Of a DNA stretch of 32,221 nucleotides, positions 274-28,430 are shown piece after piece. The notes beneath the pieces were generated by a model. It made no database searches. It was not told where the DNA came from and saw only the letters and a program-made list of their open reading frames with translations. The DNA is taken from contig DTTI01000044.1 of assembly GCA_012964825.1 (NCBI GenBank), forward strand, positions 1 through 32,221, read 5' to 3'. Positions within the stretch are counted from its first letter, which is position 1. Every line of letters starts with the position of its first letter. The DNA comes from Candidatus Neomarinimicrobiota bacterium (GTDB taxonomy: Bacteria > Fidelibacterota > Marinisomatia > Marinisomatales > S15-B10). The position numbers were made by a program, and so were the translations under genes.

Positions 274-1203
274 CTACCGCACTGTAAGGCTTACAGGCTC
301 GGGAAAATCTAGAAAAAGGCCTGGTCCATACCGAGCCTGCACTCTTTTGGTATATCTTATCTCTCGCTCACGGTTTGCAAACTCAATTCCCTTCACTGAT
401 CCCCAGATACTGCCCCCGTAAAGCCCAACCAGGGTAATTCGAGGAACCCACTTGGCAATGACCGTCGGTCCTCCAGCAAAGAACTGAATGGTCAATCCTG
501 TCATGGAAGCGAAGGTACCCACGGCGGGAATCCAGTCTTGGAGGTAAACGCGCCCTCCACCGGGGAATATACCGAAAAGCCCTGTCCTAACGGGATCCCG
601 GTTTGGGAGCTTTTCCACATTGTCGCAGGCCTTCATGAGCACTGTCAGGTTACGGCGGTGCTCTTTCGAATCAAATATGCGCCGTGCCTGGTCGAATCTC
701 TTCTTAGCTTCTTCGAATTGCAGATCATTGAATTTCGCATATCCGTCCAGTGTGATCAGATAGGGATCTTGTGTGGATCCTACCATGGTATAAACCGTAT
801 CGTAGTCGCCTTGCATGAGGTTGAGGTAGATAAGTCGGTACCGTGTCGCACGGAATTCGGAGCTGTTAGGCTGTACTTCGTTCTGAGCTTTATTAAAGTA
901 ATCGGTGGCCAGTACGTATTTTCCCTGTTCTTCATAGCTCCTGGCAATTTTGTAATAGACATTCGGTGTCAGCAGATCATCTGGATAGAGGAACAGATAC
1001 CTGAAGCACGCCACCACACATCTTTCATAATACCCCTGATCAAACAGAAAATCGCAAAAGCTTGTGAGCTCCTCTTTCTGGTACCCAGTGTATTCCTTCC
1101 ATTGCTCCTCCAGATCGGCTACAGTACCGTAAGTTGTCTGAGCGGGCAAAGGTGATAACGCCATTGCCCATATAAAAAGGTTGTATAAGTATCTTTTCAG
1201 CAT
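274..1203 (-). CDS. Exported tetratricopeptide-repeat protein with C-terminal TM2-like segment
   Basis: This 309-residue protein starts with a signal peptide (hydrophobic residues about 7-20, cleavage after a PAQ motif near 22). Residues about 45-190 are helical and TPR-like, with alternating YYxxA, Yxx(A/G) and FxxA patterns such as KIARSYEEQGKY. The C-terminal third (about 210-280) has a PGGGRVYLQDW segment and hydrophobic stretches, recalling the PGxGxxY motif of small membrane proteins that accompany TPR modules. It probably sits in the envelope, perhaps as an outer-membrane or periplasmic scaffold. It is the last gene of the secreted block before the rRNA leader, five bases after the gene at 1209-2081. 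The precise function is unknown. Confidence 0.8.
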   Translation of the reverse strand: MLKRYLYNLFIWAMALSPLPAQTTYGTVADLEEQWKEYTGYQKEELTSFCDFLFDQGYYERCVVACFRYLFLYPDDLLTPNVYYKIARSYEEQGKYVLATDYFNKAQNEVQPNSSEFRATRYRLIYLNLMQGDYDTVYTMVGSTQDPYLITLDGYAKFNDLQFEEAKKRFDQARRIFDSKEHRRNLTVLMKACDNVEKLPNRDPVRTGLFGIFPGGGRVYLQDWIPAVGTFASMTGLTIQFFAGGPTVIAKWVPRITLVGLYGGSIWGSVKGIEFANREREIRYTKRVQARYGPGLFLDFPEPVSLTVR

Positions 1204-1208
1204 GGAGA

Positions 1209-2081
1209 CTACTTCAACAATGTCATTTTCTTCGTTTCAGAAAAATCTCCGGCCACAAACTTGATGTAGTATATACCGGCTGAAACAGGAACCCCTTTAT
1301 CATTTAGCCCTGACCAATTCATGGAATGACTCCCCGCCGACAGGTTGCCTCGTACCAAAAGAGCGACCTCCCTCCCCAACATGTCGTAAACGGCTAACCG
1401 AATATCAGAATCACCGGGCAAGTCGAAACTGAATGTAGTGGTGGGATTAAACGGATTAGGATAATTTTGATGTAGTGCAAACTGTGCTGGCACCAGTTTA
1501 CTGTGCTCATGAACAGCGAGCCAGTTCACTTCATAGGTTACAGGATTCTGCTCATCGGGATATACACAGAGAACGTTCTCACCATCGGCATCAGATAGTA
1601 TAACATCTTCATTAGAGTCAAGATAGAATGACAGCTGGGACGGTAGTCTTTTCACCACATCAAACATGACCTCTACCAGAACCCCTTCCGAGCTCTGCAC
1701 AGTCTGCCCTCCTTCAAGGTCCAAACCTAAAACAGTGGTCGATCCGTCGGCATGTTCTATTCCCCACACTTCCCAGTCGGCGGCCTTGCCGCCAGTTCGG
1801 GCCCAGTTAAAACGCAACGTGCCGTTAGAATTATTACGCAATGTAAACTGAAATCCCCTGAGAGCCTCATTGTCAAATACCACAATTGGCACCAGGACCG
1901 AGGTATCCGTTCCCGCAACGGCTGAGGAAAAGCCGAGGCATCCACACTGGCCGGTGGCTACCGTATCACCAAATGTGACACTGGTGGAGTCTAAATCAAC
2001 ATACCGGGCGGTTTCGTTGGGACAGTCAATCTCCGCTGACAACGTTGAGATAAGATAAACAAATGGCAGAAAGCGCTTCAT
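1209..2081 (-). CDS. Secreted protein with cohesin-like domain and T9SS type A sorting domain
   Basis: The 290-residue product has a short N-terminal signal peptide (about 1-16). Its middle part, about residues 60-170, is beta-rich and has the layout of cohesin-like domains found in large secreted proteins: a VPIVVFDNEALRGFQFTL-type strand pair, then alternating strands ending in a DSNEDVILSDADGE loop. Residues about 205-290 are the C-terminal sorting domain: NYPNPFNPTT, then a VYDMLGREV strand, WSGLNDKG, SAGIYY and a terminal KKMTLLK. In Bacteroidetes such domains direct export by the type IX system and cell-surface attachment; use of the same route here is inferred. It has no visible catalytic motif and may be a surface-binding protein. 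Confidence 0.85.
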   Translation of the reverse strand: MKRFLPFVYLISTLSAEIDCPNETARYVDLDSTSVTFGDTVATGQCGCLGFSSAVAGTDTSVLVPIVVFDNEALRGFQFTLRNNSNGTLRFNWARTGGKAADWEVWGIEHADGSTTVLGLDLEGGQTVQSSEGVLVEVMFDVVKRLPSQLSFYLDSNEDVILSDADGENVLCVYPDEQNPVTYEVNWLAVHEHSKLVPAQFALHQNYPNPFNPTTTFSFDLPGDSDIRLAVYDMLGREVALLVRGNLSAGSHSMNWSGLNDKGVPVSAGIYYIKFVAGDFSETKKMTLLK

Positions 2082-2146
2082 AGCAAAATCATTGTTAATG
2101 AAGGAATCTACACATCATCGCTTGTAATAATGAAAAAGGAGCAGCT

Positions 2147-5100
2147 TTACTTCAAAAGGGTCATCTTCCGGATCCGGAAATCATTGCCGGCCCTAACAGA
2201 GAGTAGATAGATACCCGCCGCCACGTGATTACCGCGCATTTCAGTGCCATCCCAATTTAGCAGGTGCAAGCCGCCATTCATCTGTTCGGAAGCTAATATT
2301 TTCACCTCTCTACCGGTTACATCATAAACAACGGCGGTGACAAAACGTTCATTCGGAAGGCTGAGTTCAACTGCCGTTGTAGGATTGAACGGGTTGGGAT
2401 AGTTATCTGATACTGAAAATTTTATAGGTAACTCATCAGGCACATCAGCTATGGATAATGCCGGATCATAGATTATTCCTGTGCGAAAAGGTCCGCCCCT
2501 ATACATCCGCCAGCGGGTGCCATCACCGGCCCTCGTCTTCACATCTATAACTACAAGCTGCGTGGATGCCGCTGCCGCAATTTCCGGGTCACCGTCACCA
2601 TCCAGATCACCCACTGTGAAGGAACTCTCCACCGACCCCTTCAGATTGATCGGAAAACTGGACACTACCGTACCGTCAAGATTAACGGCGAAAAGCATCC
2701 CTTCGGTGAGTGAGGCCACCACCTCAGCCACGCCGTTGTTATCCAGATCAAATGCTACGGGTGAACTCTTTAAAGCTGTGGTGCCACCCAAGTAAAATGG
2801 CCAGCCCGACATCTCTAATAGCTGATTCTCGGAATAGCGGACCCCGTAGAGCTTCCCATCATTGGCGCCAAAAATAATTTCATAGGTACCGTCACCGTCC
2901 AAATCATCAACCATGGGTGAACTTTGAACATGCCCGCCCACGGCATAGGTGGCTAGGGACTTCCCTTGCCAATCAATAATGTGGAGCTTGTCATCATCAG
3001 AGCCGATAATGATTTCCAACATCCCGTCACCGTTCAAATCGGCCAAAGCAGGATCAGTAGATACTTTGTTGCCCGTGGTGTATGGAAATCCACTGGGAAT
3101 GGAACCGTCAGCAGTGAACAGATAAACATGATCACTCCATGTCCCAATCACAATGTCAAACTGGTTGTCTCCATCCACATCACCCACTGCAGGGGCGGAA
3201 AAGATGGATTCATTGATTGAAATGGGAAATGAACCGTAATCAGTGCCGTCATGATTGATGACGTAAAGATATTTCTCAAAAATAGTGAAAATGATTTCCA
3301 GATCTCCGTTCCGGTCCAGATCGGCCAGGACCGGCGGTGAAACGATCATCCCGTTGGCGGAGTATTCCGCTTCTTTCACACCATCATGACTCAATATATA
3401 AAGTGTGTTGTCCATGGAGCCGAAGACCACTTCAAGCTGCCCATCTCCATCCACATCTCCAATGGCGGGGGTGGAGCGAACATTGCGGCCCGCTTTGAAA
3501 GACCATTTAAGATCGCCGTCAGCGTTAAGCACGTATAGATAGTGATCATCTGATCCCATAAGAACTTCCTGTATGCCATCTCCATCAAGGTCAATGATGG
3601 TGGGTGATGTCCTGATTATGTTGTCTGCTGTAAACGGGAAGCCGGCCTGGTTCAAACTTACATCTACTGAAAATTTCTTTGTGTCCTGGTAAATGTTGCT
3701 GCCCGATCCCTCGGCTATAACCTCCATGGAAAAAGGGATCTCATCGGGCGTCATGGCCACATCAACCTGAAACTGGAACCGGTCAGTCACATTGACACCG
3801 CTGTTTCCCGATCCGATGTCAGGAAACACCGCCTCGCTGTCGATCATAGTCACCGCCCAGTGATCTGAGGAGAGTGTTGCTGTAATGTTTTTTGCATCCG
3901 CCCACCCTTCTTCATTCACAAGGACAACTCTCATCAGTGCGATCTCTCCGGGATTGAGTACACCGTCATCATCGTTCACCGGCTGAGTGGAGTAGGAAGA
4001 GACCTTAAGCTGAGGCAGCATTCCGCTGGCGATAGCGCGGAAAACATTGAGCCGCCCTGAACCGATCTTGCCTACATAAGATGAATTGTTATCATCAATA
4101 TTATCGGTACCACGGAGGACCATCTGTTCAATTTTGTCAGCCGATTCGTTTGGGTAATAAGACCAGACGAGGCCCAAGGCCCCGGCCACAAGGGGTGAAG
4201 ACATGGAGGTTCCGCTCCAAGAAGCATACTTGCCATCATAGACTGTGCTGAGAATACCGGAACCCGGCGCTATAATGTCCACCCAAGTTCCATAATTGGA
4301 AAAACCGCTTTTCCTATCTGAAGAATTTGAAGAAGCAACTGAGACAACACTTCTGTAAGCGGCTGGATAGCTTTCATCTTCACTCTCCTCATTGCCTGCA
4401 GATGCGACTACAATAGCACCATAATTATCCCTGATGTTGTTGTAGAGTGCACGTTCCGAATTGGACCGTCCTCCGCCTCCCCAACTAAGATTGATTATGT
4501 GAGCACCAGCTTTTGCAGCATAGAGAACGCCTGCGGAACCACCGCCGTCAAAAGTGGAGTCCGACGGGTTATCATCGTACTGAATTTTTACCGGCATATG
4601 TTTAATGGAAAAACCAACACTTGCCATACCAATACCATTATCCGTTGTAGCTGCCACGATACCCGCAACATGTGTACCATGAGGGTTACCATTAGTGGGA
4701 CCGGGATCAGGCGGCGCCATAGGATCATTGTCCGGATCATTTCCCGCTGTCTTACCAGAAACATCCCAACCGATGAGATCATCCACATAGCCATCCCCAT
4801 CATCGTCAACTTCGTTCAAGTCTCCAGGATCGAGCTGCCATTGCCCGTTGATAAGCTCGATTGTGTGACCGTCACCGTCAAAATCTTCATCAAGATTTTG
4901 CCACAGATTATCCACAAGATCGGGATGATCCCATTCACAGCCACTGTCTACGACCCCTACAACAATAGTTGGATCACCTGGAAGGTCGCCCCCTTGAATA
5001 TCCCATAAATCCCAGGCCTCAGGCGCCTGAATGGTTCGCAAATACCACTGGTTGTTATACCGGGGATCATCAGGTGTATAGCGAAAACGATAATTGGGAA

Positions 5101-5452
5101 CATATTCGGCAGATCTGATGGTTGGTTCAGAAGCCAATTCGCTTCGAACGGCGCTCCTATCGACAGTTTCATCATTAAATTTGATATCGTAGTAGCGGCT
5201 CAAAAGGATATCCCCATCCCTGTCCTTGTCTGTGGCTTGAGGTAGCCATTGGCTGATCCGCGCTGCGCCATGGCGGGAGAGCAAATTATCTATGCTTTCG
5301 ATACCAGTCTTGTTCGAAATCAGGTCAATTGCTTCTACATTTACACTTTCATGAAAATAGATTCTGACCACATTGTCAAGATAGACGCGTCCTTTCGGTT
5401 CAGCTACTAAAAAACAAAAACACCCCAAGAGTAAAAAATAAAATCTTCTCAT
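2147..5452 (-). CDS. Subtilisin-family (S8) serine protease with FG-GAP/VCBS repeats and T9SS sorting domain
   Basis: I chose the ATG at 5452 (1101 residues) because an AGGTG ribosome site precedes it; an in-frame GTG six bases upstream is possible. A signal peptide (about 1-17) is followed by a propeptide-like region to about 125. The S8 catalytic residues are Asp169 (VVDSGCEWDHPD), His258 (NPHGTHVAGI), the oxyanion Asn353 (SAGNE) and Ser416 (SGTSMSSPLVAG). Between Asp and His lies an insert with two DxDGDG calcium-binding-like loops. Residues about 590-980 hold at least six FG-GAP/VCBS repeats with DxDGDGxxE cores, predicted to form a beta-propeller that binds calcium. The end (about 1020-1101) is the NYPNPFNPTT sorting domain. 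The likely role is an extracellular or surface protease for protein degradation. Confidence 0.95.
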   Translation of the reverse strand: MRRFYFLLLGCFCFLVAEPKGRVYLDNVVRIYFHESVNVEAIDLISNKTGIESIDNLLSRHGAARISQWLPQATDKDRDGDILLSRYYDIKFNDETVDRSAVRSELASEPTIRSAEYVPNYRFRYTPDDPRYNNQWYLRTIQAPEAWDLWDIQGGDLPGDPTIVVGVVDSGCEWDHPDLVDNLWQNLDEDFDGDGHTIELINGQWQLDPGDLNEVDDDGDGYVDDLIGWDVSGKTAGNDPDNDPMAPPDPGPTNGNPHGTHVAGIVAATTDNGIGMASVGFSIKHMPVKIQYDDNPSDSTFDGGGSAGVLYAAKAGAHIINLSWGGGGRSNSERALYNNIRDNYGAIVVASAGNEESEDESYPAAYRSVVSVASSNSSDRKSGFSNYGTWVDIIAPGSGILSTVYDGKYASWSGTSMSSPLVAGALGLVWSYYPNESADKIEQMVLRGTDNIDDNNSSYVGKIGSGRLNVFRAIASGMLPQLKVSSYSTQPVNDDDGVLNPGEIALMRVVLVNEEGWADAKNITATLSSDHWAVTMIDSEAVFPDIGSGNSGVNVTDRFQFQVDVAMTPDEIPFSMEVIAEGSGSNIYQDTKKFSVDVSLNQAGFPFTADNIIRTSPTIIDLDGDGIQEVLMGSDDHYLYVLNADGDLKWSFKAGRNVRSTPAIGDVDGDGQLEVVFGSMDNTLYILSHDGVKEAEYSANGMIVSPPVLADLDRNGDLEIIFTIFEKYLYVINHDGTDYGSFPISINESIFSAPAVGDVDGDNQFDIVIGTWSDHVYLFTADGSIPSGFPYTTGNKVSTDPALADLNGDGMLEIIIGSDDDKLHIIDWQGKSLATYAVGGHVQSSPMVDDLDGDGTYEIIFGANDGKLYGVRYSENQLLEMSGWPFYLGGTTALKSSPVAFDLDNNGVAEVVASLTEGMLFAVNLDGTVVSSFPINLKGSVESSFTVGDLDGDGDPEIAAAASTQLVVIDVKTRAGDGTRWRMYRGGPFRTGIIYDPALSIADVPDELPIKFSVSDNYPNPFNPTTAVELSLPNERFVTAVVYDVTGREVKILASEQMNGGLHLLNWDGTEMRGNHVAAGIYLLSVRAGNDFRIRKMTLLK

Positions 5453-5461
5453 GAGCACCTG

Positions 5462-8311
5462 TTAACGAACGATGAGAAGTTTTTTCGTCGACATAAAACC
5501 GGGCGCTTCCATTCTGTAAAAATAGACACCTGAAGCAAAGCCGCGGCCGTTAAGAAAATAGGTATAGCTTCCCGGTGCCAAAAACTTGTCATGGAGGCGG
5601 CTCACCTCTCTCCCGGTAATGTCATAGAGCTTCAGAACGACTCGTCCCTCTCTTGCAACATCAAATTTAATGAGGGTTTCCGGGTTGAAAGGATTTGGCA
5701 TATTCTGACTCAGCACGAACTGCTCAGGCAGACCTATGTCGTCCTCAACACCAGCCCCCTCAATGTCGATGGCGGTGCGAATAAGGAGATCCCCTTCATA
5801 ACCAAGATCGGAAAGGGGGGCCCATTCGTCAACCTCTGTGTAATAGTAGCTTCGCTCTTTCGATTCGCTACCGGTGTCAATACTGAGCGGCGGTGAATCG
5901 GCCGTCTCACCCCATGCAACATAGAATTGTCCCTCAGTGAAGGTCAACCCCGCGCCAGAAACATCTTTGATATTCCAACCCTGAGTCACCGTAGGAAAAA
6001 TGAGTGTTGCGCCTATGTGATTGCCAGGCATACCATCATTGCCGTCATCATCAAAGATGGCCAGGTAGGTCAGTCCTCCTGCTTCTCTGGAGTGATATTT
6101 TAAGGTCATGAGTGTGATTGGGAAAATGTTAGAGCTGAATCTTACAGCGTACCAACTATTCTCACCCAAGGACGTTGCACCGGTCTCCGATGTGCCGTCA
6201 TCATAAGCTACTTCCCTGACCGTGTCAGATCTGGGCCGGATGGTCACAGTAGAAGACATTGCACTTTCCACTTCATCAGAGGCTCCAGAGTTGTAAATCG
6301 ATGTAATCCCATAGGTGTAATCAACTGCTATGAGAACCAACGAATCAGTAAAACTTGTTTTCGTCAAATATGTACCGTCCGGCAAAGGCTCGGCGAAAGA
6401 CTCGCCCGGGGCGTGGCGGTAAACGTTGTAGACAGCATTCTGTCCGCCTTGTGTAGAAACCTCAACTCGGATCCCCCACTCCCCATCGGGAAGATTGTTG
6501 TTCTCTGCAGTGGTTCTCCACCGTTGCCAGGGCCCGTCTCCAAGTTTGGTCCAGGAATGTTCACTTGGGGTTGCATCTTCATCGAGCCCAGCATGCAAAA
6601 GGGTGTCTATTGCCTGAGCAATGAGGAAGTCACCCTCAAATTCCCAGTCCACTTCAATCTCGTTCCATACTGCCGAAGACCGGGACATGGTGATGTCGTA
6701 GCTCGGCTCGTCCGCCGGCTCTCCGCCCGCCACTTCATAACCGTAGACCGTAACCGTGCTCACACTGTCTGCGCCTATAAGTTTCACTTTTTTAACTATG
6801 GCAGAGGAACCGAAAGGCATCTTGAAAACATTGCCACAGAGGCCAGTACCCCCAGTCATAAAGATAGCATCTTCAAATGAACCGTCATCATAGGCTACTT
6901 CACCATCAATATCACCGCTGGGAACAGCCTCCCACGAAAGTTCCACCGTTCCGCCGCCTGTGGAGACGGTTAATCCCTTGGGAGCAGGAGCAGTTTCCAC
7001 CAGCGATTTTTTCCAGACATGGAGATCGTCAATATATAGGCCCATGCTGGTGTTGCCTGTATCCCCATCGTGGTTGTCATCAGATTTGAATTCCCAGGCT
7101 ACACGAATTCTGTTTCCTGCCCATTGGGACAAATCCAGCTGAACGTTCGTATCTTCATTGAAGGGACTTCCAGGACCATAGATTTCCCAGCCGTAGGTAC
7201 CAGGACGACCATCGGTGCCGTAATCATAAGTAACGGCGTAGGAAGGTGCGCTAAGTTCAGCTCCGGCCCACCACGACTTGGTTCCGTCGTATCCGTTGTA
7301 TTCGTTCATGTTCCAATGAGATCCCCCAGCGGGTGTGAGGACTACCTTATCGTCAGCATTGTCGTAGAGCAATGTATCCGAGCTGTTGGATACCAAAACT
7401 TCATCCACATAGAAACCACTTCTGTACAGCGTGTTATCATCCGCCGTGCTCCAACCTGGATCAGACGCAAAAACAAACCGGATTTTCACGGTATCACCGC
7501 TAAATGAGCTCAGATCAAACTCTGCGTCAACCCAGTCGTCAATTTTGTCCGTCCAGCCCGGAACGTTGCACTGGTCCAGGTTGTACTGAAAACCAAAACA
7601 GCTACTACATTCGTAGCTTGGAGTTCCTTCAATTGTAGTCCACGACATACCCTGGTCTTTTGAAACCTGAACGTTAGCGGCATCCCAACCATTTAGAACA
7701 CAACCGCTGTCATCCGTGTAAGGCAGACCAGATATTGACTCAAGGCGATAAAGCAGTTTGAATGTTAGTTTGTAATCATTGCTGGTGATCTCAAGTTCCG
7801 GGGAGAGGAGATATTCCACCCATTCATTGGAGTATCCCCTGAGAGAATTGTCCATATCCTGAACCCAAAGCCTGTAATAATCTTCAAGAGAACCGTCACC
7901 ATTTCCGTCTGAATCGAGCATCTCAGCCCAGACTGCAAACGAAAAATGGAGTTCTTCCAGTTCAGCGTCAATTTCAGGCAGTTGAATTATGGGGCTTAAC
8001 AATGTGTCATTCTCATCTATCCCTACAGCATGATGAAAACTGTGGGTAGGGCTGTTTGAAGTCTCGGTGGTGATTTTCCAGGTGCCCTGAGTTTCCCAGT
8101 CTGCAACCCCAGACTCAAGGTCGTCGTAGAAAATGCTGGTTGTGTCCGGAAGTACAGCTGGTTGCGTACCGTGTATCAGAGTCTTTCCTGAAACATTTCG
8201 GAAGGCAGACAGACGTTTTTCTCCGCCTTTGGTTGCTTTTTTTTCATTACCGTTGGCAGTTACAATCATCAGCAGAAAAACAGGAAAAAGTCTCAGTAAC
8301 AAACTTTTCAT
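5462..8311 (-). CDS. Large secreted multi-domain protein (MAM/choice-of-anchor-like) with T9SS sorting domain
   Basis: The 949-residue product has a signal peptide (about 1-21) and an ATG preceded by a GGAG ribosome site. The N-terminal half has repeated beta-sandwich modules of the type seen beside immune-inhibitor-A peptidases and in choice-of-anchor domains: a DDLESGVADW start, then GFYVDEVLV near 300 and GLYIDDLHVWKK near 430. A fibronectin-III-like segment (APKGLTV...VELSWEAV) follows near 440. Two later beta-rich modules both start with VAYDDG. The last about 85 residues are the NMPNPFNPET sorting domain. I see no HExxH or other protease motif, so it is probably a binding or adhesion protein rather than an enzyme. 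Its stop lies just before the S8 protease start, suggesting co-transcription. Confidence 0.87.
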   Translation of the reverse strand: MKSLLLRLFPVFLLMIVTANGNEKKATKGGEKRLSAFRNVSGKTLIHGTQPAVLPDTTSIFYDDLESGVADWETQGTWKITTETSNSPTHSFHHAVGIDENDTLLSPIIQLPEIDAELEELHFSFAVWAEMLDSDGNGDGSLEDYYRLWVQDMDNSLRGYSNEWVEYLLSPELEITSNDYKLTFKLLYRLESISGLPYTDDSGCVLNGWDAANVQVSKDQGMSWTTIEGTPSYECSSCFGFQYNLDQCNVPGWTDKIDDWVDAEFDLSSFSGDTVKIRFVFASDPGWSTADDNTLYRSGFYVDEVLVSNSSDTLLYDNADDKVVLTPAGGSHWNMNEYNGYDGTKSWWAGAELSAPSYAVTYDYGTDGRPGTYGWEIYGPGSPFNEDTNVQLDLSQWAGNRIRVAWEFKSDDNHDGDTGNTSMGLYIDDLHVWKKSLVETAPAPKGLTVSTGGGTVELSWEAVPSGDIDGEVAYDDGSFEDAIFMTGGTGLCGNVFKMPFGSSAIVKKVKLIGADSVSTVTVYGYEVAGGEPADEPSYDITMSRSSAVWNEIEVDWEFEGDFLIAQAIDTLLHAGLDEDATPSEHSWTKLGDGPWQRWRTTAENNNLPDGEWGIRVEVSTQGGQNAVYNVYRHAPGESFAEPLPDGTYLTKTSFTDSLVLIAVDYTYGITSIYNSGASDEVESAMSSTVTIRPRSDTVREVAYDDGTSETGATSLGENSWYAVRFSSNIFPITLMTLKYHSREAGGLTYLAIFDDDGNDGMPGNHIGATLIFPTVTQGWNIKDVSGAGLTFTEGQFYVAWGETADSPPLSIDTGSESKERSYYYTEVDEWAPLSDLGYEGDLLIRTAIDIEGAGVEDDIGLPEQFVLSQNMPNPFNPETLIKFDVAREGRVVLKLYDITGREVSRLHDKFLAPGSYTYFLNGRGFASGVYFYRMEAPGFMSTKKLLIVR

Positions 8312-8363
8312 AACATCTCCAAGATTAAAGGATATTCTAAGTCCATACTTTATCTGAATTAGG

Positions 8364-10325
8364 CTACTTGAGCAGGATCATTTTCTTCGTCTTCCTTATG
8401 CTGCCTGCTTGAAGACGATAAATATAAATACCTGCCGGAGAATTGGCCCCGTTCCACGAAACGGCGTGATTACCGGCATCTGACGGACCCTTCAGCAGGG
8501 TTGTCACTTCGTTACCTAACAAGTCGTAAACTGTCAGTGAAACTTCGGCTTTCTCCGGGAGGGTAAATTCTATGACCGTAACAGGGTTGAACGGATTGGG
8601 ATAGTTCTGCGCCAGATCAATACGGGCTGGCAAAAGATCTGAATCTTCCACAGTAAGAGGCTTAAGTGTCACTTTGGAAAAGTATACCCTGTTCTTGAAA
8701 TCAGCCTGTGACGGTGAACCCCCATCAGAAGGCGTGACGGTCTGAACATTGTAGTCCGGGCTCTCGAACATAATATAGGCCTCATTATCGGTGGCTATGA
8801 ATGCCAGCTGAGGATAAACCTCATCAAGCTCCCTGTCCCTGGTGTCTGTAACGTTGACTGGGGCTTCCCAGGTTTTCCCGCCATCGATAGAGCGCTGAAC
8901 AAAGACATCATAATTAAAATAGGTTTCGGTGGTGTCTGCAACGGCCATGTAGCCCACATACATGACGTGAGGGTCATCTTTACTGATGGCGGCTGACGGG
9001 TAGATCCTATGCCAGTTATTGTCCCAGAAAAAAGAAATCTGGGTGGAGTTGACAAAATAGATCTCCCAACTCTCGGGATCGGAAGGATCATTAGAAAAAA
9101 AGTGGTAAATGCCGCAAGATTCATCTATAGCAGGATAGACACTGCCGCTGGAACTTGGAATTGCCGTAGAGAAAATGTGCAGACCTCCGGAAGGGTCCGT
9201 CTTCAGTTCGACTTCGTAGGATATAAACGGACTTTCAAATACGACTGTATCAAACTTTGCTATCATCAAGCTGTCACTGAAAAAGCGGTCTTTCAGAATA
9301 TCACGAGGGATATAGTAATAGTCCGTTCCATCCATACCAGTTCCACCCTCCCCACTCCAGCTTGCACCGTAATCAGTTGTTTTTCGTATCATGACGGTGT
9401 GAGATGAATCGGGGGATTGACCCTTGAAATAACTAGAAACTGCAGCATAGCCGGTTCCGCTTTCGTTAATATCTATAACCACATTTGAGGTGAATCCACC
9501 TTGCATGAAATCAGCTTCATCAAAGAGCAATATGGGATCGTCAAAAGTAAAGTAACCGGACATATTTTTATTGGAGTGGTAAAGCCACCTGTTGCTTGAA
9601 GTTTCCTGAAGGGAATTTGACCACTGGCTGTAAGCAGCATTCAGCACCGGTGTGTCACCGTCATGGGCCAGGGAGACGGAACCGACCCAATTGTCCGGCG
9701 GGTCGCACGGTGTAGGGCTACAACCGTTGTTGAGATCTACTGGAGGTGAAAAGAAAGAACCACCTCCATAATAAAATTCATCCCAACTGTAGACTGGTCG
9801 GCCACCATACAGACCGCCCCCAGTGCCTGTCTGGGTATATTCGTTCCAAACAATGTAAGGGTAATCACTACCGGCTACTGCACTGGGATAGCGACCCATT
9901 TTCTCGGCCGGTTCAATGATGTTCAAATCTGAGTAGGTAGTAAACAACTCGCCATCCTCAGACCATGCCGCCCCCATATAGCCCGAATTTATGGGGTCAT
10001 TGAAGCTCCACTGCCTGTAGGCCATGATGAAACCGTTGTCAGGATGATATGACAGCGGTGTGGTGTTACCAACCACCATACCGTACCCGTTCCGGGAAGA
10101 ATCCACCAGAACTGTGGATACAGAAGATGTGGAACGGTAAACCCTGGGCGAATGCGAGTTTGAGTTACTATAAATAAGTGTTGGTTCGCCCTCCAACTGG
10201 AACTTCATGGTGGCTGGTTGTACCTGTGCCTGCATCCGCTTCGGTACCGGACTTTGTGCCAGAAGTGTGGCGGCAAAACAGACAAAAAGAATAAGTGTAC
10301 TTTTTTTCAAAGCTGACTCTTGCAT
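8364..10325 (-). CDS. Secreted Asp-box (BNR/sialidase-like) repeat protein with T9SS sorting domain
   Basis: The 653-residue product has a signal peptide (about residues 8-24, ending LLAQ). Asp-box motifs typical of sialidase-fold beta-propellers are visible: TDYGASW in the middle and SIDGGKTW near 485, with a more degenerate WSEDGELFTT near 115. The last about 85 residues form the sorting domain with NYPNPFNPVT, VYDLLGNEV and a terminal KKMILLK. I do not see the sialidase arginine triad clearly, so enzymatic activity is not claimed; many such propellers only bind glycans. It is the first of four consecutive sorting-domain genes in transcription order and follows clpP by 45 bases. The ATG at 10325 was taken; a TTG near codon 6 is an alternative. 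Confidence 0.85.
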   Translation of the reverse strand: MQESALKKSTLILFVCFAATLLAQSPVPKRMQAQVQPATMKFQLEGEPTLIYSNSNSHSPRVYRSTSSVSTVLVDSSRNGYGMVVGNTTPLSYHPDNGFIMAYRQWSFNDPINSGYMGAAWSEDGELFTTYSDLNIIEPAEKMGRYPSAVAGSDYPYIVWNEYTQTGTGGGLYGGRPVYSWDEFYYGGGSFFSPPVDLNNGCSPTPCDPPDNWVGSVSLAHDGDTPVLNAAYSQWSNSLQETSSNRWLYHSNKNMSGYFTFDDPILLFDEADFMQGGFTSNVVIDINESGTGYAAVSSYFKGQSPDSSHTVMIRKTTDYGASWSGEGGTGMDGTDYYYIPRDILKDRFFSDSLMIAKFDTVVFESPFISYEVELKTDPSGGLHIFSTAIPSSSGSVYPAIDESCGIYHFFSNDPSDPESWEIYFVNSTQISFFWDNNWHRIYPSAAISKDDPHVMYVGYMAVADTTETYFNYDVFVQRSIDGGKTWEAPVNVTDTRDRELDEVYPQLAFIATDNEAYIMFESPDYNVQTVTPSDGGSPSQADFKNRVYFSKVTLKPLTVEDSDLLPARIDLAQNYPNPFNPVTVIEFTLPEKAEVSLTVYDLLGNEVTTLLKGPSDAGNHAVSWNGANSPAGIYIYRLQAGSIRKTKKMILLK

Positions 10326-10370: not shown

Positions 10371-10964
10371 TCACCGCTTGTTTAAAACACGGTCGATGAG
10401 TCCGTACTTTTTCGCTTCTTCAGCGGTCATGAAGAAATCTCTGTCCGTATCGTCCGTGATCTTCTTGAGGGTCTGGCCTGTCTGAAACGCCAACATCTTG
10501 TTCAGCCGCTCCTTCATGGCCAGAAGCTCCTGTGCATGGATCTGGATGTCGCTGGCGGTTCCCTGCATACCGGCCCACGGCTGATGAACCATAACACGGG
10601 AGTTGGGCAGGGCCGAACGTTTTCCCTTCTTCCCCGCTGACAACAATACCGCTCCCATGCTGGACGCCTGCCCCATGCAAATGGTAGCCACATCGGGCTT
10701 GATATAATTCATTGTATCCACAATCCCCAACCCAGAAGTGACAGAGCCACCAGGAGAATTAATGTATAGCGAAATATCCTTATTAGAACTCTCAGCCTCC
10801 AGGAAAAGCAGCTGGGCAATGGTGAGGGACGCTACGGTGTCGTCCACGGGAGTGCCAATAAATACAATCCGCTCCTTCAGCAGGCGTGAATAGATGTCGT
10901 ATGCACGTTCCATCCTCCCTGACTTCTCAACAACAATCGGTACAATCTGAGATCTTTCAATCAT
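10371..10964 (-). CDS. clpP: ATP-dependent Clp protease proteolytic subunit ClpP
   Basis: At 197 residues this has the usual ClpP length and no long extension. The catalytic triad is Ser102 (GQASSMGA), His127 (MVHQPW) and Asp176 (DTDRDFF). The SPGGSV oxyanion loop (70-75) and the [17 protein letters not shown]-terminal segment are typical. ClpP forms a double heptameric cytoplasmic chamber that degrades proteins delivered by ClpX, ClpA or ClpC. It lies eight bases after tig, the common tig-clpP order, but clpX does not follow here: the next gene encodes a secreted protein. It is likely co-transcribed with tig. Confidence 0.98.
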
Positions 10965-12349: not shown

Positions 12350-13000
12350 TCAGCGGGGAAGCTGACCCGCGACGATCATGACACCACCCTGATAGAGCAG
12401 CCAGAGACACACTATCTGGACGGCGTGAAAAAGGTCGTTGTGGTTGAAATTTTTGTGAATAGACCATCCCGTGGCCCACAAACCGCCGGCAGCAACAGTA
12501 AGGAGCGCCCCAGCGAAGAGATAACCAGACCCGGAGAGGGCCTGCCGCCAGTAAAGTGTTGCGAATACAGCCAGGATAACCATCAGCCCTACAGCTATAA
12601 ACTTTATCGAATGACCGAACCCAGCAAATTTTACCGTTTGCCACACATATAAGATAAGGCCGATGGCAGCCACCCACAGGATGATCCAATAGGATGAAAA
12701 AGGTATTACCGCAGAAACTCCCGCCATCATGAGGAAAAATGTAGTAAATCCCATACATGTCAGAGCCACCTTCCAGATCCACTCCCGCATCATTTGAGAA
12801 AAGTGGGGGCCAAAGCCATGAAACAGAGCACCCATAACGGACCCCGCCGCCACAGCAAAAAAAGCCCAGCTGAGATGGAAATGAAACGGGTGAATACTTT
12901 GCCGGTAAACATCTGACATTTTCTGCCCCAGGGTAAAAGTTATTAAGAGTAAAATGATGTTTATGACGAACGTCGTAGGCTCGAACAGATTTTTTTTCAT
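12350..13000 (-). CDS. Seven-TM membrane protein with CREST/DUF6962-like conserved residues
   Basis: The 216-residue product has about seven hydrophobic segments (near 9-24, 43-61, 78-98, 103-120, 132-150, 158-178, 190-212). Polar residues sit where membrane hydrolases of the CREST group (alkaline ceramidase, PAQR) place theirs: Ser54 and His61 in TM2 and the NHNDLFH motif with His187 and His192 before TM7. I believe this NHND(L)xH signature occurs in the uncharacterised DUF6962 family, from memory. Its ATG shares ATGA with the stop of the upstream zinc-ribbon gene, so translation is probably coupled. Substrate and activity are unknown; a role with lipids or redox is speculation. A competing longer reading frame over the same bases gives an implausible protein. 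Confidence 0.8.
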   Translation of the reverse strand: MKKNLFEPTTFVINIILLLITFTLGQKMSDVYRQSIHPFHFHLSWAFFAVAAGSVMGALFHGFGPHFSQMMREWIWKVALTCMGFTTFFLMMAGVSAVIPFSSYWIILWVAAIGLILYVWQTVKFAGFGHSIKFIAVGLMVILAVFATLYWRQALSGSGYLFAGALLTVAAGGLWATGWSIHKNFNHNDLFHAVQIVCLWLLYQGGVMIVAGQLPR

Positions 13001-13212
13001 TGTCCCTTTCCCCCTGCGGCTGGTTTTCTCTCACCGCAATAGATGCATTCTGTCCCCATCTGAACGGTGAAACTGCAGGTGGGACAGTTCCACTCCTCCA
13101 GATCAGACTCTTCCAGTTTACCCTCAGTCGGTTCGCGTTTCAGTGACCAGTGGAAAACGCCTCCCAAAAAGATGATGATAACGAAAAAAAAGAGCCACAG
13201 CAGGTATGTCAC
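12997..13212 (-). CDS. Small single-TM zinc-ribbon protein
   Basis: I place the start at a GTG at 13212 that overlaps the upstream stop as GTGA, giving 71 residues; a longer in-frame start at 13305 would add residues that lie wholly within the VKOR gene. Residues about 3-20 form one transmembrane segment and the tail is cytoplasmic or soluble. A zinc ribbon follows: CPTC near 44-47 and CIYCG near 57-61, with 9 residues between the pairs. The C-terminus is Lys/Gly rich. The gene overlaps its neighbours by four bases on both sides, as the whole operon does. Function unknown; it may be a membrane-tethered metal or protein-binding adaptor. Confidence 0.68.
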   Translation of the reverse strand: MTYLLWLFFFVIIIFLGGVFHWSLKREPTEGKLEESDLEEWNCPTCSFTVQMGTECIYCGERKPAAGGKGQ

Positions 13213-13632
13213 GGTGTCTTCCAGGTAAGAATCAAAAACAGCAGAACCACAGCGTGTGTGGCAAAACAGAAAGGACAGGGAGTTCGGAGCCTGTAAAGTC
13301 CCCACAAAAGGTAGAGGCTAAGAATCATGGCAAAAACGGCCGGGATCAAAAAAAATGACCTTTCAATCAGTTCCGCTCCAACAAAACAGATAACTATCAA
13401 CATAATAAGGATAATAGAGATCCCCCCAAAATGCATTCGGTTTACCGACTATTTTGCTGTAGGGTGTTCCCACCAGAGTTTGACAGTTCCCTTCAGTCAT
13501 GAGGAGAATTGCGGGCATCCACCAGGCATTGGGGCTCATTTTTCCCATTACAACCTTCTGGCAATAAAATGAGAAGGCCCAACCGGCGTCAGCCAGCAGG
13601 GCCATGAGAAGTAAATATGCAGCTTGGTTCAC
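13209..13632 (-). pseudogene. VKOR-family thiol oxidoreductase, split by one frameshift
   Basis: Two overlapping frames join into one 140-residue protein if one base is removed from the run of six G (plus-strand C at 13422-13427). The joined protein has four TM segments, a loop cysteine C50 in an EGNCQTLV motif, the SPY-like TPYSKIVGKPNAFWG segment and the redox CPFC motif at 119-122 in TM4, all typical of the vitamin K epoxide reductase family, which re-oxidises thiol-disulfide partners and passes electrons to quinone. The start is a GTG at 13632 that overlaps the preceding stop (GTGA). Both halves are well conserved, so the shift is more likely a sequence error, or a phase-variable tract, than old decay. 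Confidence 0.78.
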
Positions 13633-14069
13633 TGCCTCAACCGATAGGCGATTCCTTCGATGCATTGCATCAGTTTGTCTATCTGGGCGCCGGTTGTGAA
13701 GAGCTCGGCCATGTTCTCAAGACTGTCGATGGGAAAATTCACAGTATCATAATCTCTCAGAAAGTTGGCTTCAAGTTTGATGACAAAATCTCGCATAATG
13801 TTCTTAGGCACATCTTTTTGCCGAAGGACGTTGAGGCAGAACTTGATCTGCCCCCTTGTCGTGATCTGGAAAAGAGAAATGAGCCCGAAGTCCGACTTGG
13901 ATTTGTAGGTCATTGTACCATATTCGTTGCCTCTACCCCAGGAAACTTCATCAGCATCCCTCTCCGAGAATTCGCACAGCATTTCACCGACTTTCGCTAC
14001 TTCCCTTGAGGTATTTTTCCTCAGTTCCTGGAGAAATTTTCCCTTATCCCATTTCACATACGTCTCCAC
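13629..14069 (-). CDS. Conserved hypothetical soluble protein, first gene of the VKOR operon
   Basis: The 146-residue product has no signal peptide or TM segment. A central WGRGNEYGTMTYK stretch followed by an LFQITTRGQIKF strand looks like a conserved core and recalls small alpha/beta domains attached to nucleases or restriction-like proteins, but I cannot name a family. The start is uncertain: GTG at 14069, or GTG at 14057, which has a GGAG six bases upstream. Its stop overlaps the VKOR start (GTGA). It is divergent from the EamA gene, so its promoter should lie in 14070-14158. Why a soluble protein heads an operon of membrane proteins is unclear. Confidence 0.7.
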   Translation of the reverse strand: METYVKWDKGKFLQELRKNTSREVAKVGEMLCEFSERDADEVSWGRGNEYGTMTYKSKSDFGLISLFQITTRGQIKFCLNVLRQKDVPKNIMRDFVIKLEANFLRDYDTVNFPIDSLENMAELFTTGAQIDKLMQCIEGIAYRLRQ

Positions 14070-20776: not shown

Positions 20777-23617
20777 CTATTTTACATAATAGGATTCATC
20801 AGCTGGTCGGAGGGTTCTCGCCATCCAAAGTGGTCGTCGAAGACCTCCGGGTCCCGGACCCGGCCGCGTCATCTCCAACCACTCTTTGTAGATCTCAAAA
20901 GACCTGTTCGTGTCCACCTGAATATCTCCATATTTCTCATTTGGGCCAGGAAGGGAGAGTCTCACCTTCTGATGCCAGCAATGCATCCCTGAAATAGGGT
21001 CTGGGTGAACAGGAAAAGTAATATTCTGGTGAACACCGCCATCCCGCCACCAGATCCGTTTTGAATCTGAATCGCCGCTTTCAAAGGGCTGAACCAACTC
21101 CGATAGTTTCATCTTCCATTTGCCTTCCTGTGACTCTTCCATTTTTACCGTACTGGTCATCCAGCTGTTGCCCGAGGGATCCTGTGACCTGCGCCAGCGG
21201 CCTGTATGGTGGGAACAGGCCACCACATCAGGTTTGATGGCTTCCGTGATCCACACCTTATCGATAAAATAACCAATATCTGTTTCAACTTTCACAAGAT
21301 CGCCTGACCGCTTCAATCCGATGTGGATCGCTGTCTTTGGGTGCATCCAGACTGGGTTTCGGTGTGAAATCTCCGCTAGCCATTTGGCATTGCCTGACCT
21401 GCTGTGAATTAGTGTGGGCAAACGGAATGTGGGCACCAAAACATACTCATTCCTAGATCGGTCTAGGCTGTCCGGATGGATATGACTCTTTATGTAGCCT
21501 GGAATTGTCTGGTCATTCCACTTCCACCGAGCCATGGTATCGGAATAGAATTCCTGCTTTTTGGACGGGGTGGGGAAACCACACACAGCTGTACCGTTAT
21601 CACGAATTGCTACCACCTTGCCATCCTTAATAAATTGACCGAAATCGTTCAGCTCCGCCCCTTCCGTATCAGCGGTACCGAGATGCTTAGCGTAAGAAGA
21701 GGCTTCTACCTCAAAGGCGCCGAATTTCCGCATATATTCCAACGGGGAAAGATTTTCATTTTTCGCTGCCCCTGTAAGACCAGGAATGTTTTCAAAGATG
21801 TACTGATAATATTCATCAATGTTGATCTTTTCACCATTCCGGTAAGGGGACTTGAAATGGTCCCGTATACCCAACGATTCATCGGGGTCCATCTTCCAGG
21901 AAAGCTCGATCCAGAATTCATCCTCTTCCCACACCTCACCGGGGTTCACCTCGTGGGTGAACTGAACCTCTCTCCCTTCCCGCCGAGCATACTCTCTCAA
22001 TACCGGTTGGCGAAAGGCGATCCAGACAGAGGAATGTGTTTCATAGGAGTTGAGATCGTGGCGTTCGCTGGCGTGGCCCATGGGCAGAACATAATCAGCC
22101 CAGTAGGCAGTCTCGTTCCAGGTGGGTGTCAGGGCAACATGACATTTGATTTTGGACTCATCCCGTAGTACCTCGATCCAACTGAACCCGTCCGGATAGG
22201 TCCAGACAGGATTAAAGACCCGTGTGAAATAAACATCAAGTTCTCCCCTGCCATCTTTGAGGAAGTGCGGAAGAAGAAAACTCAGTTCATGATGTGCCAA
22301 GGGATATTCCATGGGGTACTGGAGAATATTCCAGAATTTTTGTGCCGGTGGCGTGTCAAAGAATGTCGGTTTGAACTTGTTCCATCCGCTTGGTGAGGTC
22401 CCTCCCTCCGTACCCACACTCCCGGTCAGAACGTTGAGAAAATGGAGACACCGGGCCACCTGCCAGCCACCTAAATTACCGCTTCCCGCTGAACGCCAGT
22501 TGTGGGTTGCCAGCTGGGTACCCGCTTCAGCCACGTGCTGTGCCGCTTCAACAATTTTTTCCGCCTCCACCCCAGCTTCTTGGGCGGCGAACTGAGGTGT
22601 GAATTCGGCATATTCCTCTTTTATCCGTTTAATGAAATTGTCGAAAATGACCTCATCCCCGGGATGGACCTTCTGAAGATAGTCGTGCCAGTTCACCCAC
22701 GTCTCCATGAATTGTCTATCGTACCTACCTTCATCCAGGATGATCTTTGCCATAGACAGTAGAACAGCCGCTTCCGATCCGGGATATGTGGGCAGCCAGA
22801 TATCGGCCATACTGGCTGTATTGGAGAGGCGCGGATCCATCACAATAAGTTTTGCTCCGTTCATCATCCCCTCAATAATCCGCTGGGCATGTGGATTGAA
22901 ATAGTGGCCGGTTTCAAGATGAGAACTGATGAGGAGAATAGTCTTGGCATTGGCGTGATCGGGAGACGGGCGGTCAAAAAAGTGCCACAAAGCGTACCCT
23001 AGCCGGGCACCGGCGGAGCAGATGTTTGTGTGTGAATTGTGGCCGTCCACACCCCAGGCCTGGATTACTCGCTCGGTATAACCCTCGTGTCCCGGGCGAC
23101 CCACATGATAAACAACGGAGTTGTGACGCTTTGCTTTCAGGGAATTGTGTATCTGCCCAGCAATGTCGTCCAAGGCGGCTTCCCAGGATACTTTCTCCCA
23201 CTGACCGGACCCTCTCTCCCCTTTCCTTTTCAGGGGATAAAGAATGCGCTCCTCATCGTTGATCTGGTTAATGGTGGCAGGGCCTTTGGCACAAAGTCGC
23301 CCCCGGCTGGCTGGGTGGTAAGGATTTCCCTCAAATTTCCGGACATTACCGGACTGCTTGTCCACGTAAGCCAGTAGACCACAGGCAGATTCGCAGTTAA
23401 AACAGGTAGTGGGAACAATGGAATAATTTTTCTTTTCCCGCCGCGGCCAGGAACCAGCGTCATATTCCGTCCAGTCATGCCACTGTTCCGGAGACGGATA
23501 TTTGGAAAAATCACCTTCAGAAACGGGCAGGTCGCCTGGAGTCGGTTCAATGGTTTCCAAAATTCCAAGCGATTCGCAAGCTTTTTCTATTAACGATTTT
23601 TTCAGACTGGTTGTCAC
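20777..23617 (-). CDS. Molybdopterin oxidoreductase catalytic subunit (Psr/Phs/Soe-like)
   Basis: The 946-residue protein belongs to the DMSO-reductase (CISM) family. It has an N-terminal [4Fe-4S] site with Cys72, 75, 79 and 109 (CxxCxxxC...LCAKG). Cys200 in NICSAGARLG aligns with the cysteine Mo ligand of Psr/Phs/Nap-type enzymes, not Ser or Asp. The dinucleotide-binding domain spans about 725-900. No twin-arginine signal precedes the cluster; the only RR (59-60, SWPRREKK) lies too far in and lacks a hydrophobic stretch. So it is probably cytoplasmic, like the sulfite dehydrogenase SoeA, rather than periplasmic PsrA. The start is GTG with no clear ribosome site, three bases after the FeS/NrfD gene. 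The substrate (polysulfide, thiosulfate or sulfite) is undecided. Confidence 0.93.
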   Translation of the reverse strand: MTTSLKKSLIEKACESLGILETIEPTPGDLPVSEGDFSKYPSPEQWHDWTEYDAGSWPRREKKNYSIVPTTCFNCESACGLLAYVDKQSGNVRKFEGNPYHPASRGRLCAKGPATINQINDEERILYPLKRKGERGSGQWEKVSWEAALDDIAGQIHNSLKAKRHNSVVYHVGRPGHEGYTERVIQAWGVDGHNSHTNICSAGARLGYALWHFFDRPSPDHANAKTILLISSHLETGHYFNPHAQRIIEGMMNGAKLIVMDPRLSNTASMADIWLPTYPGSEAAVLLSMAKIILDEGRYDRQFMETWVNWHDYLQKVHPGDEVIFDNFIKRIKEEYAEFTPQFAAQEAGVEAEKIVEAAQHVAEAGTQLATHNWRSAGSGNLGGWQVARCLHFLNVLTGSVGTEGGTSPSGWNKFKPTFFDTPPAQKFWNILQYPMEYPLAHHELSFLLPHFLKDGRGELDVYFTRVFNPVWTYPDGFSWIEVLRDESKIKCHVALTPTWNETAYWADYVLPMGHASERHDLNSYETHSSVWIAFRQPVLREYARREGREVQFTHEVNPGEVWEEDEFWIELSWKMDPDESLGIRDHFKSPYRNGEKINIDEYYQYIFENIPGLTGAAKNENLSPLEYMRKFGAFEVEASSYAKHLGTADTEGAELNDFGQFIKDGKVVAIRDNGTAVCGFPTPSKKQEFYSDTMARWKWNDQTIPGYIKSHIHPDSLDRSRNEYVLVPTFRLPTLIHSRSGNAKWLAEISHRNPVWMHPKTAIHIGLKRSGDLVKVETDIGYFIDKVWITEAIKPDVVACSHHTGRWRRSQDPSGNSWMTSTVKMEESQEGKWKMKLSELVQPFESGDSDSKRIWWRDGGVHQNITFPVHPDPISGMHCWHQKVRLSLPGPNEKYGDIQVDTNRSFEIYKEWLEMTRPGPGPGGLRRPLWMARTLRPADESYYVK

Positions 23618-23620
23618 AGG

Positions 23621-25216
23621 TTAACTCAAGGCTATCAGTTGAGGGACTCTAATCCAGATATGTTCCGTTACAAGAATTCCAGCAAGAAGTACCAGCACAG
23701 AGATCTGAATCGGAACGACCGTCACGCCGACAAACAAAATGATCAGAGGGATGACTCTTGTCAGCCCGATTGCCATCCAGAAGGGTGCTGCATACCGTCC
23801 ACGAAGGATCATCTGAGCGGCGGTCCGGGCGTCATCGGTCAGTCTTGAGGAAGTAAGCTCTGCCGCGAAAATAGCGAGATTAAGAAGAAGCAAACCCACC
23901 ATAAATAAAGCAAGTCCCGTTGAAATCCCGCCCGTTAGCAGTGCAATACCGGCTCCGCCGGCCAGAAGGGCGTGTATAACCATCTGATAAGGGGCCATAT
24001 GAGACTGCCAGAAATCCCGCCCCTTGGCCTGGGCGAAAAGGAAGGCGGTATAAACGGCAGAAAAAAGAGCCAGGGCCGCACCTACCCACTCAAGCCAGGC
24101 GAGGTTCATAAGGTTCAGATAACTGTTCAAAAGAAGCAGTGTCAGCACACCTCCAAAGCACACAAGGCCGTAGGCCCCTTTCACCAACCAGGAGGTCCAT
24201 TGAGGCCGGAGAATGACATAAAGAAACCGCCTTGGCTGGTCCAAATCCTTGACCAACAGGACGGTGGTAAGCAGTAAAAATATGAGTGAACCCCAAAGGG
24301 AGTTTATCTCGGCAGCAGGAGAAAATGTTGCCCACCCCATAAGTTTGGAGAAAAAAGTCATAAAGAAAAGTCCGCTGGACATGGCCTTTGTCCAGACATA
24401 GGCTGAAACCTCCCATCCCCACAAAACACCTTTGCTGGGACTATCATAGACCCGGCGCGCATCACCGGATTTAAGTGTTTCAACAATTTCGTCAGGGGAG
24501 TTGCCTTTCTCTCTTTTTGCCCCCGCCTCCATGGCGAGCTGGATGAGCATATCTTTGGGATCTTTTTCGTTGGCCTTCTGTTCGGCAAAGTGGGAAAAAT
24601 GACCTACACCTTTATACTGTTCACTCCAGAGGTACTGGTCGTCAGGCTTCGCCGACATAGGATCCAGAGAAGCTTTGTCACCATTGATATAATAAAGTTT
24701 TGGTTTTGTCCCCTTCTCCGGTTTCCGGACCGTAACAGGCTCATTCTTCACCAGCTGGGAAATATTGGATTCTTCATTGTCCAAATCACCGAAAACAATG
24801 GCCTCTTCCGGGCAGACCACCACACAGGAAGGCTCTAACCCCACATCAATTCGGTGTGCACAAAAATTGCACTTTTCTGCCACGTGGTCGTCCGGGTCAA
24901 TATAAAGAGCATCATAAGGGCATGCCTGCATGCACGACTTGCAGGCGATACACCGTTGAGTGTCGAAATCGACAATACCGTTATCCCGATAATAAAGCGC
25001 GCTGGTAGGACATATTTCTACGCAGGGTGCTTCCTCACAATGGTTGCAGCGCAAAACAGAAAAGAGGCGCTGAGTGTCGGGGAAAGACCCCTTTTCTACA
25101 TACTTTACCCAGGTCCGGTTCACACCAATGGGCACCTCATGTTCGGACTTGCAGGCTACCGTACAGGCGTGGCAGCCAATACATTTCCTGTTATCGATGA
25201 GGAACCCGAGGTTCAT
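23621..25216 (-). CDS. Fused four-cluster ferredoxin and NrfD-type membrane subunit
   Basis: The 531-residue protein combines two subunits that are separate in most PsrABC or NrfCD systems. Residues 1-150 are a DmsB/PsrB-type ferredoxin with four [4Fe-4S] cysteine sets: 12/15/18/22, 57/60/65/69, 89/92/95/99 and 116/119/131/135. A charged linker (about 150-265) leads to an NrfD/PsrC-like membrane part of about eight helices (270-531) with the DLDQPRRF...WLVKGAYGL hallmark. It would pass electrons between the quinone pool and the Mo subunit. The ferredoxin has no signal peptide, so it should face the cytoplasm if the Mo subunit does. The start shares ATGA with the stop of the gene at 25213. Confidence 0.94.
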   Translation of the reverse strand: MNLGFLIDNRKCIGCHACTVACKSEHEVPIGVNRTWVKYVEKGSFPDTQRLFSVLRCNHCEEAPCVEICPTSALYYRDNGIVDFDTQRCIACKSCMQACPYDALYIDPDDHVAEKCNFCAHRIDVGLEPSCVVVCPEEAIVFGDLDNEESNISQLVKNEPVTVRKPEKGTKPKLYYINGDKASLDPMSAKPDDQYLWSEQYKGVGHFSHFAEQKANEKDPKDMLIQLAMEAGAKREKGNSPDEIVETLKSGDARRVYDSPSKGVLWGWEVSAYVWTKAMSSGLFFMTFFSKLMGWATFSPAAEINSLWGSLIFLLLTTVLLVKDLDQPRRFLYVILRPQWTSWLVKGAYGLVCFGGVLTLLLLNSYLNLMNLAWLEWVGAALALFSAVYTAFLFAQAKGRDFWQSHMAPYQMVIHALLAGGAGIALLTGGISTGLALFMVGLLLLNLAIFAAELTSSRLTDDARTAAQMILRGRYAAPFWMAIGLTRVIPLIILFVGVTVVPIQISVLVLLAGILVTEHIWIRVPQLIALS

Positions 25217-27789: not shown

Positions 27790-27807
27790 TGTTCTGTCCT
27801 CCTTTTC

Positions 27808-28044: not shown

Positions 28045-28045
28045 A

Positions 28046-28393: not shown

Positions 28394-28412
28394 ATCTAAG
28401 TTCCCCAAAATT

Positions 28413-28428
28413 ATTCCATGCAATGATT
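28413..28428. promoter_or_regulatory. Candidate ArsR-type operator (ATTC-N8-GATT)
   Basis: ATTC at 28413-28416 and GATT at 28425-28428 are eight bases apart, one base off the ATTC-N8-GAAT element that I recall being described for SqrR. It covers the expected transcription start (about 28424), just downstream of the -10 box of the minus-strand promoter, where a repressor would block initiation. This is a single imperfect match, so it is tentative. Confidence 0.35.
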
Positions 28429-28430
28429 GA

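What the first reader, a model, noticed from the sequence alone, without database searches (positions are those of the whole stretch)
12350..14069. Four-gene translationally coupled membrane operon of unknown purpose
Unknown soluble protein, VKOR, zinc-ribbon and CREST/DUF6962-like 7-TM proteins are chained by GTGA, GTGA and ATGA overlaps. VKOR implies disulfide exchange and the 7-TM His/Ser set implies a metal-dependent membrane hydrolase. Such coupling points to a single complex or pathway not described to my knowledge.
Basis: partly seen in the sequence, partly recalled or inferred. Interest (0 to 1): 0.6.

Follow-up and report, generated by a model that had tools for sequence, protein, structure and literature searches.

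The report
Patchwork gene string before trigger factor
The four overlapping genes are the front end of a longer string leading to the protein-folding gene for trigger factor and the protease gene clpP in an uncultured marine bacterium; they are swapped in and out across relatives rather than forming one fixed machine, and one of the four is broken here.

Summary
The gene string and its overlaps are real: P0004 (soluble, unknown), VKOR, a membrane-anchored zinc ribbon, and a 7-TM DUF6962 protein, all on the minus strand in a Candidatus Neomarinimicrobiota genome. (1) The VKOR gene is broken by a 1-bp insertion; two same-genus genomes carry it intact, a same-family copy is a clear pseudogene, and substitutions suggest relaxed selection. 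(2) The string runs on into tig (trigger factor) and clpP. Across the order P0004 is almost universal (43 of 45 good genomes). VKOR, the zinc ribbon and DUF6962 come and go; streamlined genomes lack all three there, and P0004 abuts or overlaps tig directly. P0004-VKOR is the tightest pair (adjacent in 30 of 37 VKOR-bearing genomes). The 7-TM protein belongs to DUF6962 and its predicted fold resembles adiponectin receptors (CREST/PAQR), but the CREST catalytic set (SxxxH, TM3 Asp, HxxxH) is not kept, so a canonical metal hydrolase is not supported. Outside the phylum DUF6962 has none of these neighbours. Best reading: a lineage-specific, modular extension of the tig-clpP locus, not a dedicated four-part complex. 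P0004 has no detectable family or solved fold and is the part worth pursuing.

The parts
13629..14057 (-).
   Evidence: 33-34 invariant residues incl. W-G-x-G and YRL near the C-terminus; no significant Pfam/NCBIfam/PHROG/PDB match
13363..13632 (-). VKOR, N-terminal part of a frameshifted gene (stop at 13363-13365)
   Evidence: (PF07884 profile 2-68)
13209..13426 (-). VKOR, C-terminal part in another frame, holding the CPFC redox motif
   Evidence: (PF07884 profile 66-134)
13400..13410 (-). approximate site of the 1-bp insertion that breaks the VKOR frame (CCTTATTATG versus CCCTTTATG in G001/G002)
12997..13212 (-). 71-aa protein with one N-terminal TM segment and a four-Cys zinc ribbon (CPxC...CIYC)
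12350..13000 (-). 216-aa 7-TM DUF6962 protein
   Evidence: PF22285 E=1.5e-26; pLDDT 94.8, seven helices
10973..12268 (-). tig, trigger factor
   Evidence: follows DUF6962 in 44 loci. Named by recognition of the sequence, not scanned against Pfam
10371..10964 (-). clpP, Clp protease proteolytic subunit
   Evidence: follows tig in 51 loci. Named by recognition of the sequence, not scanned against Pfam

Best explanation
The four genes are the front, variable part of a proteostasis operon whose stable members in this order are P0004, tig and clpP. P0004 is a small cytosolic protein made together with trigger factor and probably helps in handling newly made, mostly exported proteins (function inferred). 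VKOR, when intact, is a quinone-linked disulfide oxidase for exported proteins; here it is decaying. The zinc-ribbon protein is held at the membrane by one helix with the ribbon probably on the cytoplasmic side (inferred from positive residues after the helix). The DUF6962 protein is a CREST/PAQR-like 7-TM membrane protein with a remodelled site (Glu7, His61, Asn188-Asp189, His192), more likely acting in membrane homeostasis, like bacterial PAQR/TrhA, than as a canonical metal hydrolase (inferred). The 4-bp overlaps reflect genome compaction and coupled translation of neighbours, not a stoichiometric four-protein complex. Shown: gene order, conservation, broken VKOR, predicted fold, motif loss. 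Inferred: co-transcription and every function statement.
For: DUF6962 lies upstream of tig in 44 loci and tig abuts clpP in 51 (order seen). P0004 is present in 43 of 45 good genomes of the order and class-wide, but not in the other classes of the phylum that were listed. In six of seven direct P0004-tig pairs, all six in streamlined genomes of about 0.7-1.0 Mb, P0004 overlaps or abuts tig (-4 to +1 bp) with VKOR, ribbon and DUF6962 missing between them. P0004 to VKOR spacing is -4 to +7 bp in all 21 loci measured, and VKOR lies directly after P0004 in 30 of 37 VKOR-bearing genomes. VKOR and ribbon co-occur (24/5/10/30, Fisher p=2e-6, not corrected for relatedness). VKOR broken here and in G003, intact in G001/G002; differences by codon position 30/16/37 versus 6/6/32 for P0004 and 30/18/64 for DUF6962, pointing to relaxed selection. 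AdipoR2/1 are the best fold matches. Bacterial PAQR/TrhA act in membrane energetics (PMC9017321).
Against: In other orders of the class P0004 is not next to tig (often follows a transketolase gene), so the tig link is order-specific. Gaps between the ribbon gene and DUF6962 reach 4.9 kb and between DUF6962 and tig reach 3.0 kb, so co-transcription is not certain everywhere. Promoter and terminator scans were uninformative. No transcript or protein data. In another order P0004 and the ribbon stay near each other without tig, which could mean that this pair, not P0004-tig, is the functional unit.
Confidence: 0.55

Rival explanations
1. A dedicated four-protein membrane complex or redox pathway: VKOR supplies disulfide exchange, DUF6962 is a metal-dependent membrane hydrolase, and the ribbon and soluble protein are their partners.
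For: Three consecutive 4-bp overlaps in the genus; tight P0004-VKOR spacing order-wide; VKOR-ribbon co-occurrence; CREST-like fold.
Against: VKOR broken here and in G003; the genes are lost independently; DUF6962 elsewhere has no such neighbours; CREST catalytic motifs absent.
Confidence: 0.12
2. Chance neighbourhood plus genome compaction: P0004, VKOR, ribbon, DUF6962 and tig-clpP have unrelated functions and share only a transcript.
For: Other inserted genes in the same slot are unrelated (a CPA1-type antiporter, agmatine-deiminase-like secreted proteins, large secreted proteins); P0004 has other neighbours in other orders.
Against: P0004-VKOR adjacency in 30 of 37 genomes, at -4 to +7 bp in the loci measured; P0004-ribbon proximity also in another order; order-wide DUF6962-tig adjacency.
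Confidence: 0.28
3. The VKOR frame break is an assembly or sequencing error in this draft genome and the gene is functional (a side question, independent of the readings above).
For: Single 1-bp difference in a draft genome of 84 contigs; the CPFC motif and the C-terminal frame are preserved.
Against: High first- and second-position divergence (30/16/37 by codon position); a related copy is a multi-lesion pseudogene.
Confidence: 0.25

Closest known systems
tig-clpP locus of bacteria (tig-clpP-clpX in E. coli, from general knowledge)
   Same: trigger factor directly followed by clpP on one strand
   Different: preceded by P0004 and optional VKOR, zinc-ribbon and DUF6962 genes; clpX was not looked for downstream
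DUF6962 (PF22285)
   Same: all 50 aligned proteins, the window's included, match the Pfam family
   Different: the window's protein is divergent and has Asn in place of the nearly invariant TM1 Asp14
CREST superfamily / PAQR-HlyIII (TrhA, AdipoR)
   Same: seven TM helices and a best structural match to AdipoR2/1; one conserved TM2 His and one TM7 His align with two of the three CREST His
   Different: Ser of SxxxH, TM3 Asp and first His of HxxxH are not conserved; the organism also has a regular HlyIII
VKOR family (PF07884), bacterial VKOR/DsbB-type disulfide oxidases
   Same: relatives are above cut-off (E down to 3e-16), CxxC and one loop Cys invariant
   Different: window copy frameshifted; the second loop Cys is missing in the genus and in two other copies; no DsbB and almost no Thioredoxin_4-type partner in the order

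Membership tests
DUF6962 (PF22285) | score above curated cut-off over nearly the whole profile | tested here: met
   94.1 bits versus cut-off 27, profile 1-193 of 198
CREST superfamily | seven core TM segments with a CREST/PAQR fold | tested here: met
   AlphaFold2 pLDDT 94.8, seven helices; best Foldseek hit AdipoR2, E=7.5e-3, prob 1.00, TM 0.69/0.54; GPCRs score lower, up to about 0.61 by query length
CREST superfamily | SxxxH at the end of TM2 | tested here: not met
   His61 invariant, but the residue four before it is invariant Gly57
CREST superfamily | Asp at the start of TM3 | tested here: not met
   aligned position is Ala/Thr; the profile alignment itself is weak (probability 2%, E=0.023)
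CREST superfamily | HxxxH at the start of TM7 | tested here: not met
   NDxxH: Asn188 in place of the first His, His192 invariant
CREST superfamily | metal-dependent hydrolase activity | not testable with these tools
   needs purified protein
VKOR | intact ORF matching PF07884 above cut-off | tested here: not met
   two half-frames at 21.8 and 18.5 bits versus cut-off 27.5; no VKOR match genome-wide at E<=0.001
VKOR | CxxC plus paired loop Cys | tested here: inconclusive
   CxxC present in relatives and in the window's C-terminal half; only one of the two loop Cys in this genus
tig-clpP locus | tig followed directly by clpP | tested here: met
   window 12268-10973 and 10964-10371; 51 loci

The most novel reading that the evidence does not exclude
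P0004 is a previously undescribed, class-specific core protein with a fold not seen among solved structures that works with trigger factor on nascent chains, with VKOR, zinc-ribbon and remodelled CREST-fold proteins as optional envelope-side modules of the same protein-biogenesis operon.
Probability: 0.2. Interest if true: 0.6.

Novelty: new variant of a known kind. Interest (0 to 1): 0.35.

Why it matters
If P0004 proves to be a trigger-factor partner, a major uncultured ocean lineage has an unrecognised part of its protein-folding machinery, kept even in genomes under 1 Mb. The DUF6962 result shows a CREST/PAQR-like fold whose usual catalytic residues are replaced by a different invariant set, which makes 'hydrolase or not' testable by mutation. 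The four-gene complex itself is not supported, so no new pathway should be claimed from the overlaps alone.

Tried and rejected
Pfam, NCBIfam and PHROG scans, PDB sequence search and tblastn against plasmids for P0004: nothing significant. Fold search of P0004 in PDB and in predicted viral proteins: no match at E<=0.001, query TM-scores at or below about 0.4. PDB sequence search with the DUF6962 profile: only weak chance-level hits. Profile comparison of DUF6962 with HlyIII: full-length but weak. Literature: no held paper names DUF6962; none links trigger factor, VKOR and operon usefully. Programmed frameshifting in VKOR rejected because same-genus copies are in frame. Promoter/terminator scan uninformative.

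Full report
Observation. The four coding stretches and their overlaps are present on the minus strand: P0004 ends at 13629 and shares GTGA with the VKOR start (13632), VKOR ends at 13209 and shares GTGA with the zinc-ribbon start (13212), and the ribbon gene ends at 12997 sharing ATGA with the DUF6962 start (13000). Relatives place the P0004 start at GTG 14057 rather than 14069. The VKOR gene is not intact: its first half (13632-13363) and second half lie in different frames, and each half matches the complementary part of PF07884 below the curated cut-off. A PF07884 search of the whole genome finds no match at E<=0.001.

The VKOR break. Aligned with the two same-genus genomes, the window has one extra base (CCTTATTATG against CCCTTTATG); both relatives are in frame. 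In G003, same family, the copy has an in-frame stop and further indels. By codon position the window's VKOR differs from G001 at 30/16/37 sites, against 6/6/32 for P0004, 30/18/64 for DUF6962 and 16/5/67 for ClpP. That pattern fits relaxed selection better than a lone sequencing error, but reads are needed.

The neighbourhood. DUF6962 was found in 38 of 61 genomes, the window's own included. In their contigs the order is P0004, VKOR, zinc ribbon, variable inserts, DUF6962, tig, clpP. Inserts include a CPA1-type antiporter, agmatine-deiminase-like secreted proteins and large secreted proteins (named by eye). Measured gaps: P0004 to VKOR -4 to +7 bp in 21 loci; DUF6962 to tig mostly 41-164 bp in 44 loci, up to 3.0 kb; tig to clpP -17 to +57 bp in 51 loci; ribbon to DUF6962 from -4 bp to 4.9 kb. 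The complete three-overlap chain with intact genes was seen only in the same genus. In streamlined genomes P0004 overlaps or abuts tig (-4 to +1 bp) and VKOR, ribbon and DUF6962 are absent from the slot.

Distribution. P0004 is in 99 of 121 genomes and 43 of 45 good ones, extends through the class and is absent from the genomes of other classes that were listed. VKOR is in 37 of 121 (22 of 45 good ones) and directly follows P0004 in 30 of those 37. The ribbon is in 40 of 150 genomes of the phylum with completeness 85 or more. VKOR and ribbon co-occur more than expected (Fisher p=2e-6, counted by hand, not corrected for relatedness). In another order P0004 and the ribbon remain close, with a third gene between, without tig nearby. 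No DsbB was found in 61 genomes. Named records place the family in Candidatus Neomarinimicrobiota.

DUF6962. All 50 aligned homologues, from Neomarinimicrobiota, KSB1, Acidobacteriota, Nitrospira, Deltaproteobacteria and others, match PF22285. Outside the phylum they have none of these neighbours. Invariant residues are E7, T10, G57, H61, W76, F185, N186, N188, D189 and H192. The predicted structure is confident (pLDDT 94.8, seven helices), and AdipoR2 is the best PDB match (E=7.5e-3, TM 0.69 by query, 0.54 by target), with AdipoR1 also among the top hits and GPCRs lower by TM-score. CREST proteins are defined by SxxxH at the end of TM2, Asp at the start of TM3 and HxxxH at the start of TM7 (PMC3146951). 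Here the Ser is Gly, the Asp is Ala/Thr and the first His is Asn. The fold is CREST-like; the catalytic set is not. The genome also has an ordinary HlyIII, whose bacterial homologues affect membrane energetics (PMC9017321).

P0004. A confident model (pLDDT 90.9) matches nothing in the PDB or the viral library at E<=0.001, and no family library recognises it. Its near-universal, almost always single-copy presence in its order, including very small genomes, is the strongest hint of an important role; its link with tig in this order suggests nascent-protein handling, but other orders do not share that link.

Verdict. The most likely reading is a modular, lineage-specific front end of the tig-clpP locus, with a decaying VKOR in this genome.

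Noticed in passing
L219 (G010:C33:1700-3300) and L221 (G029:C72:3700-5300): DsbA-like Thioredoxin_4 genes with an in-frame TGA in place of the first redox Cys (UPYC motif); the four PF13462 hits in the order each contain one TGA, and selB is present in all eight genomes checked, the window's included: probable selenoproteins. The L220 translation was in a wrong frame, and no SECIS element was sought.
   Followed up: partly
window 20777-28459: Molybdopterin oxidoreductase, 4Fe-4S/NrfD-like protein, rhodanese plus metallo-beta-lactamase, TusA-like and ArsR-like genes lie together, suggesting a sulfur-redox island (read from the translations, not scanned).
   Followed up: no
L066 and L067: In G008 and G005 the DUF6962 homologue lies in a different conserved neighbourhood without tig, while G008 has P0004-VKOR-ribbon-tig-clpP on another contig (L161).
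   Followed up: no
L199-L218: In other orders of the class P0004 often follows a transketolase gene.
   Followed up: partly
L212 complement, 5891-6376 in the reversed locus: A gene weakly matching Nfu_N (PF08712, E=5e-4, below cut-off) lies between P0004 and the zinc ribbon in family f19.
   Followed up: no
window 274-10325: Several large secreted proteins end in a YPNPFNP...KKMxLLK C-terminal sorting-like domain.
   Followed up: no
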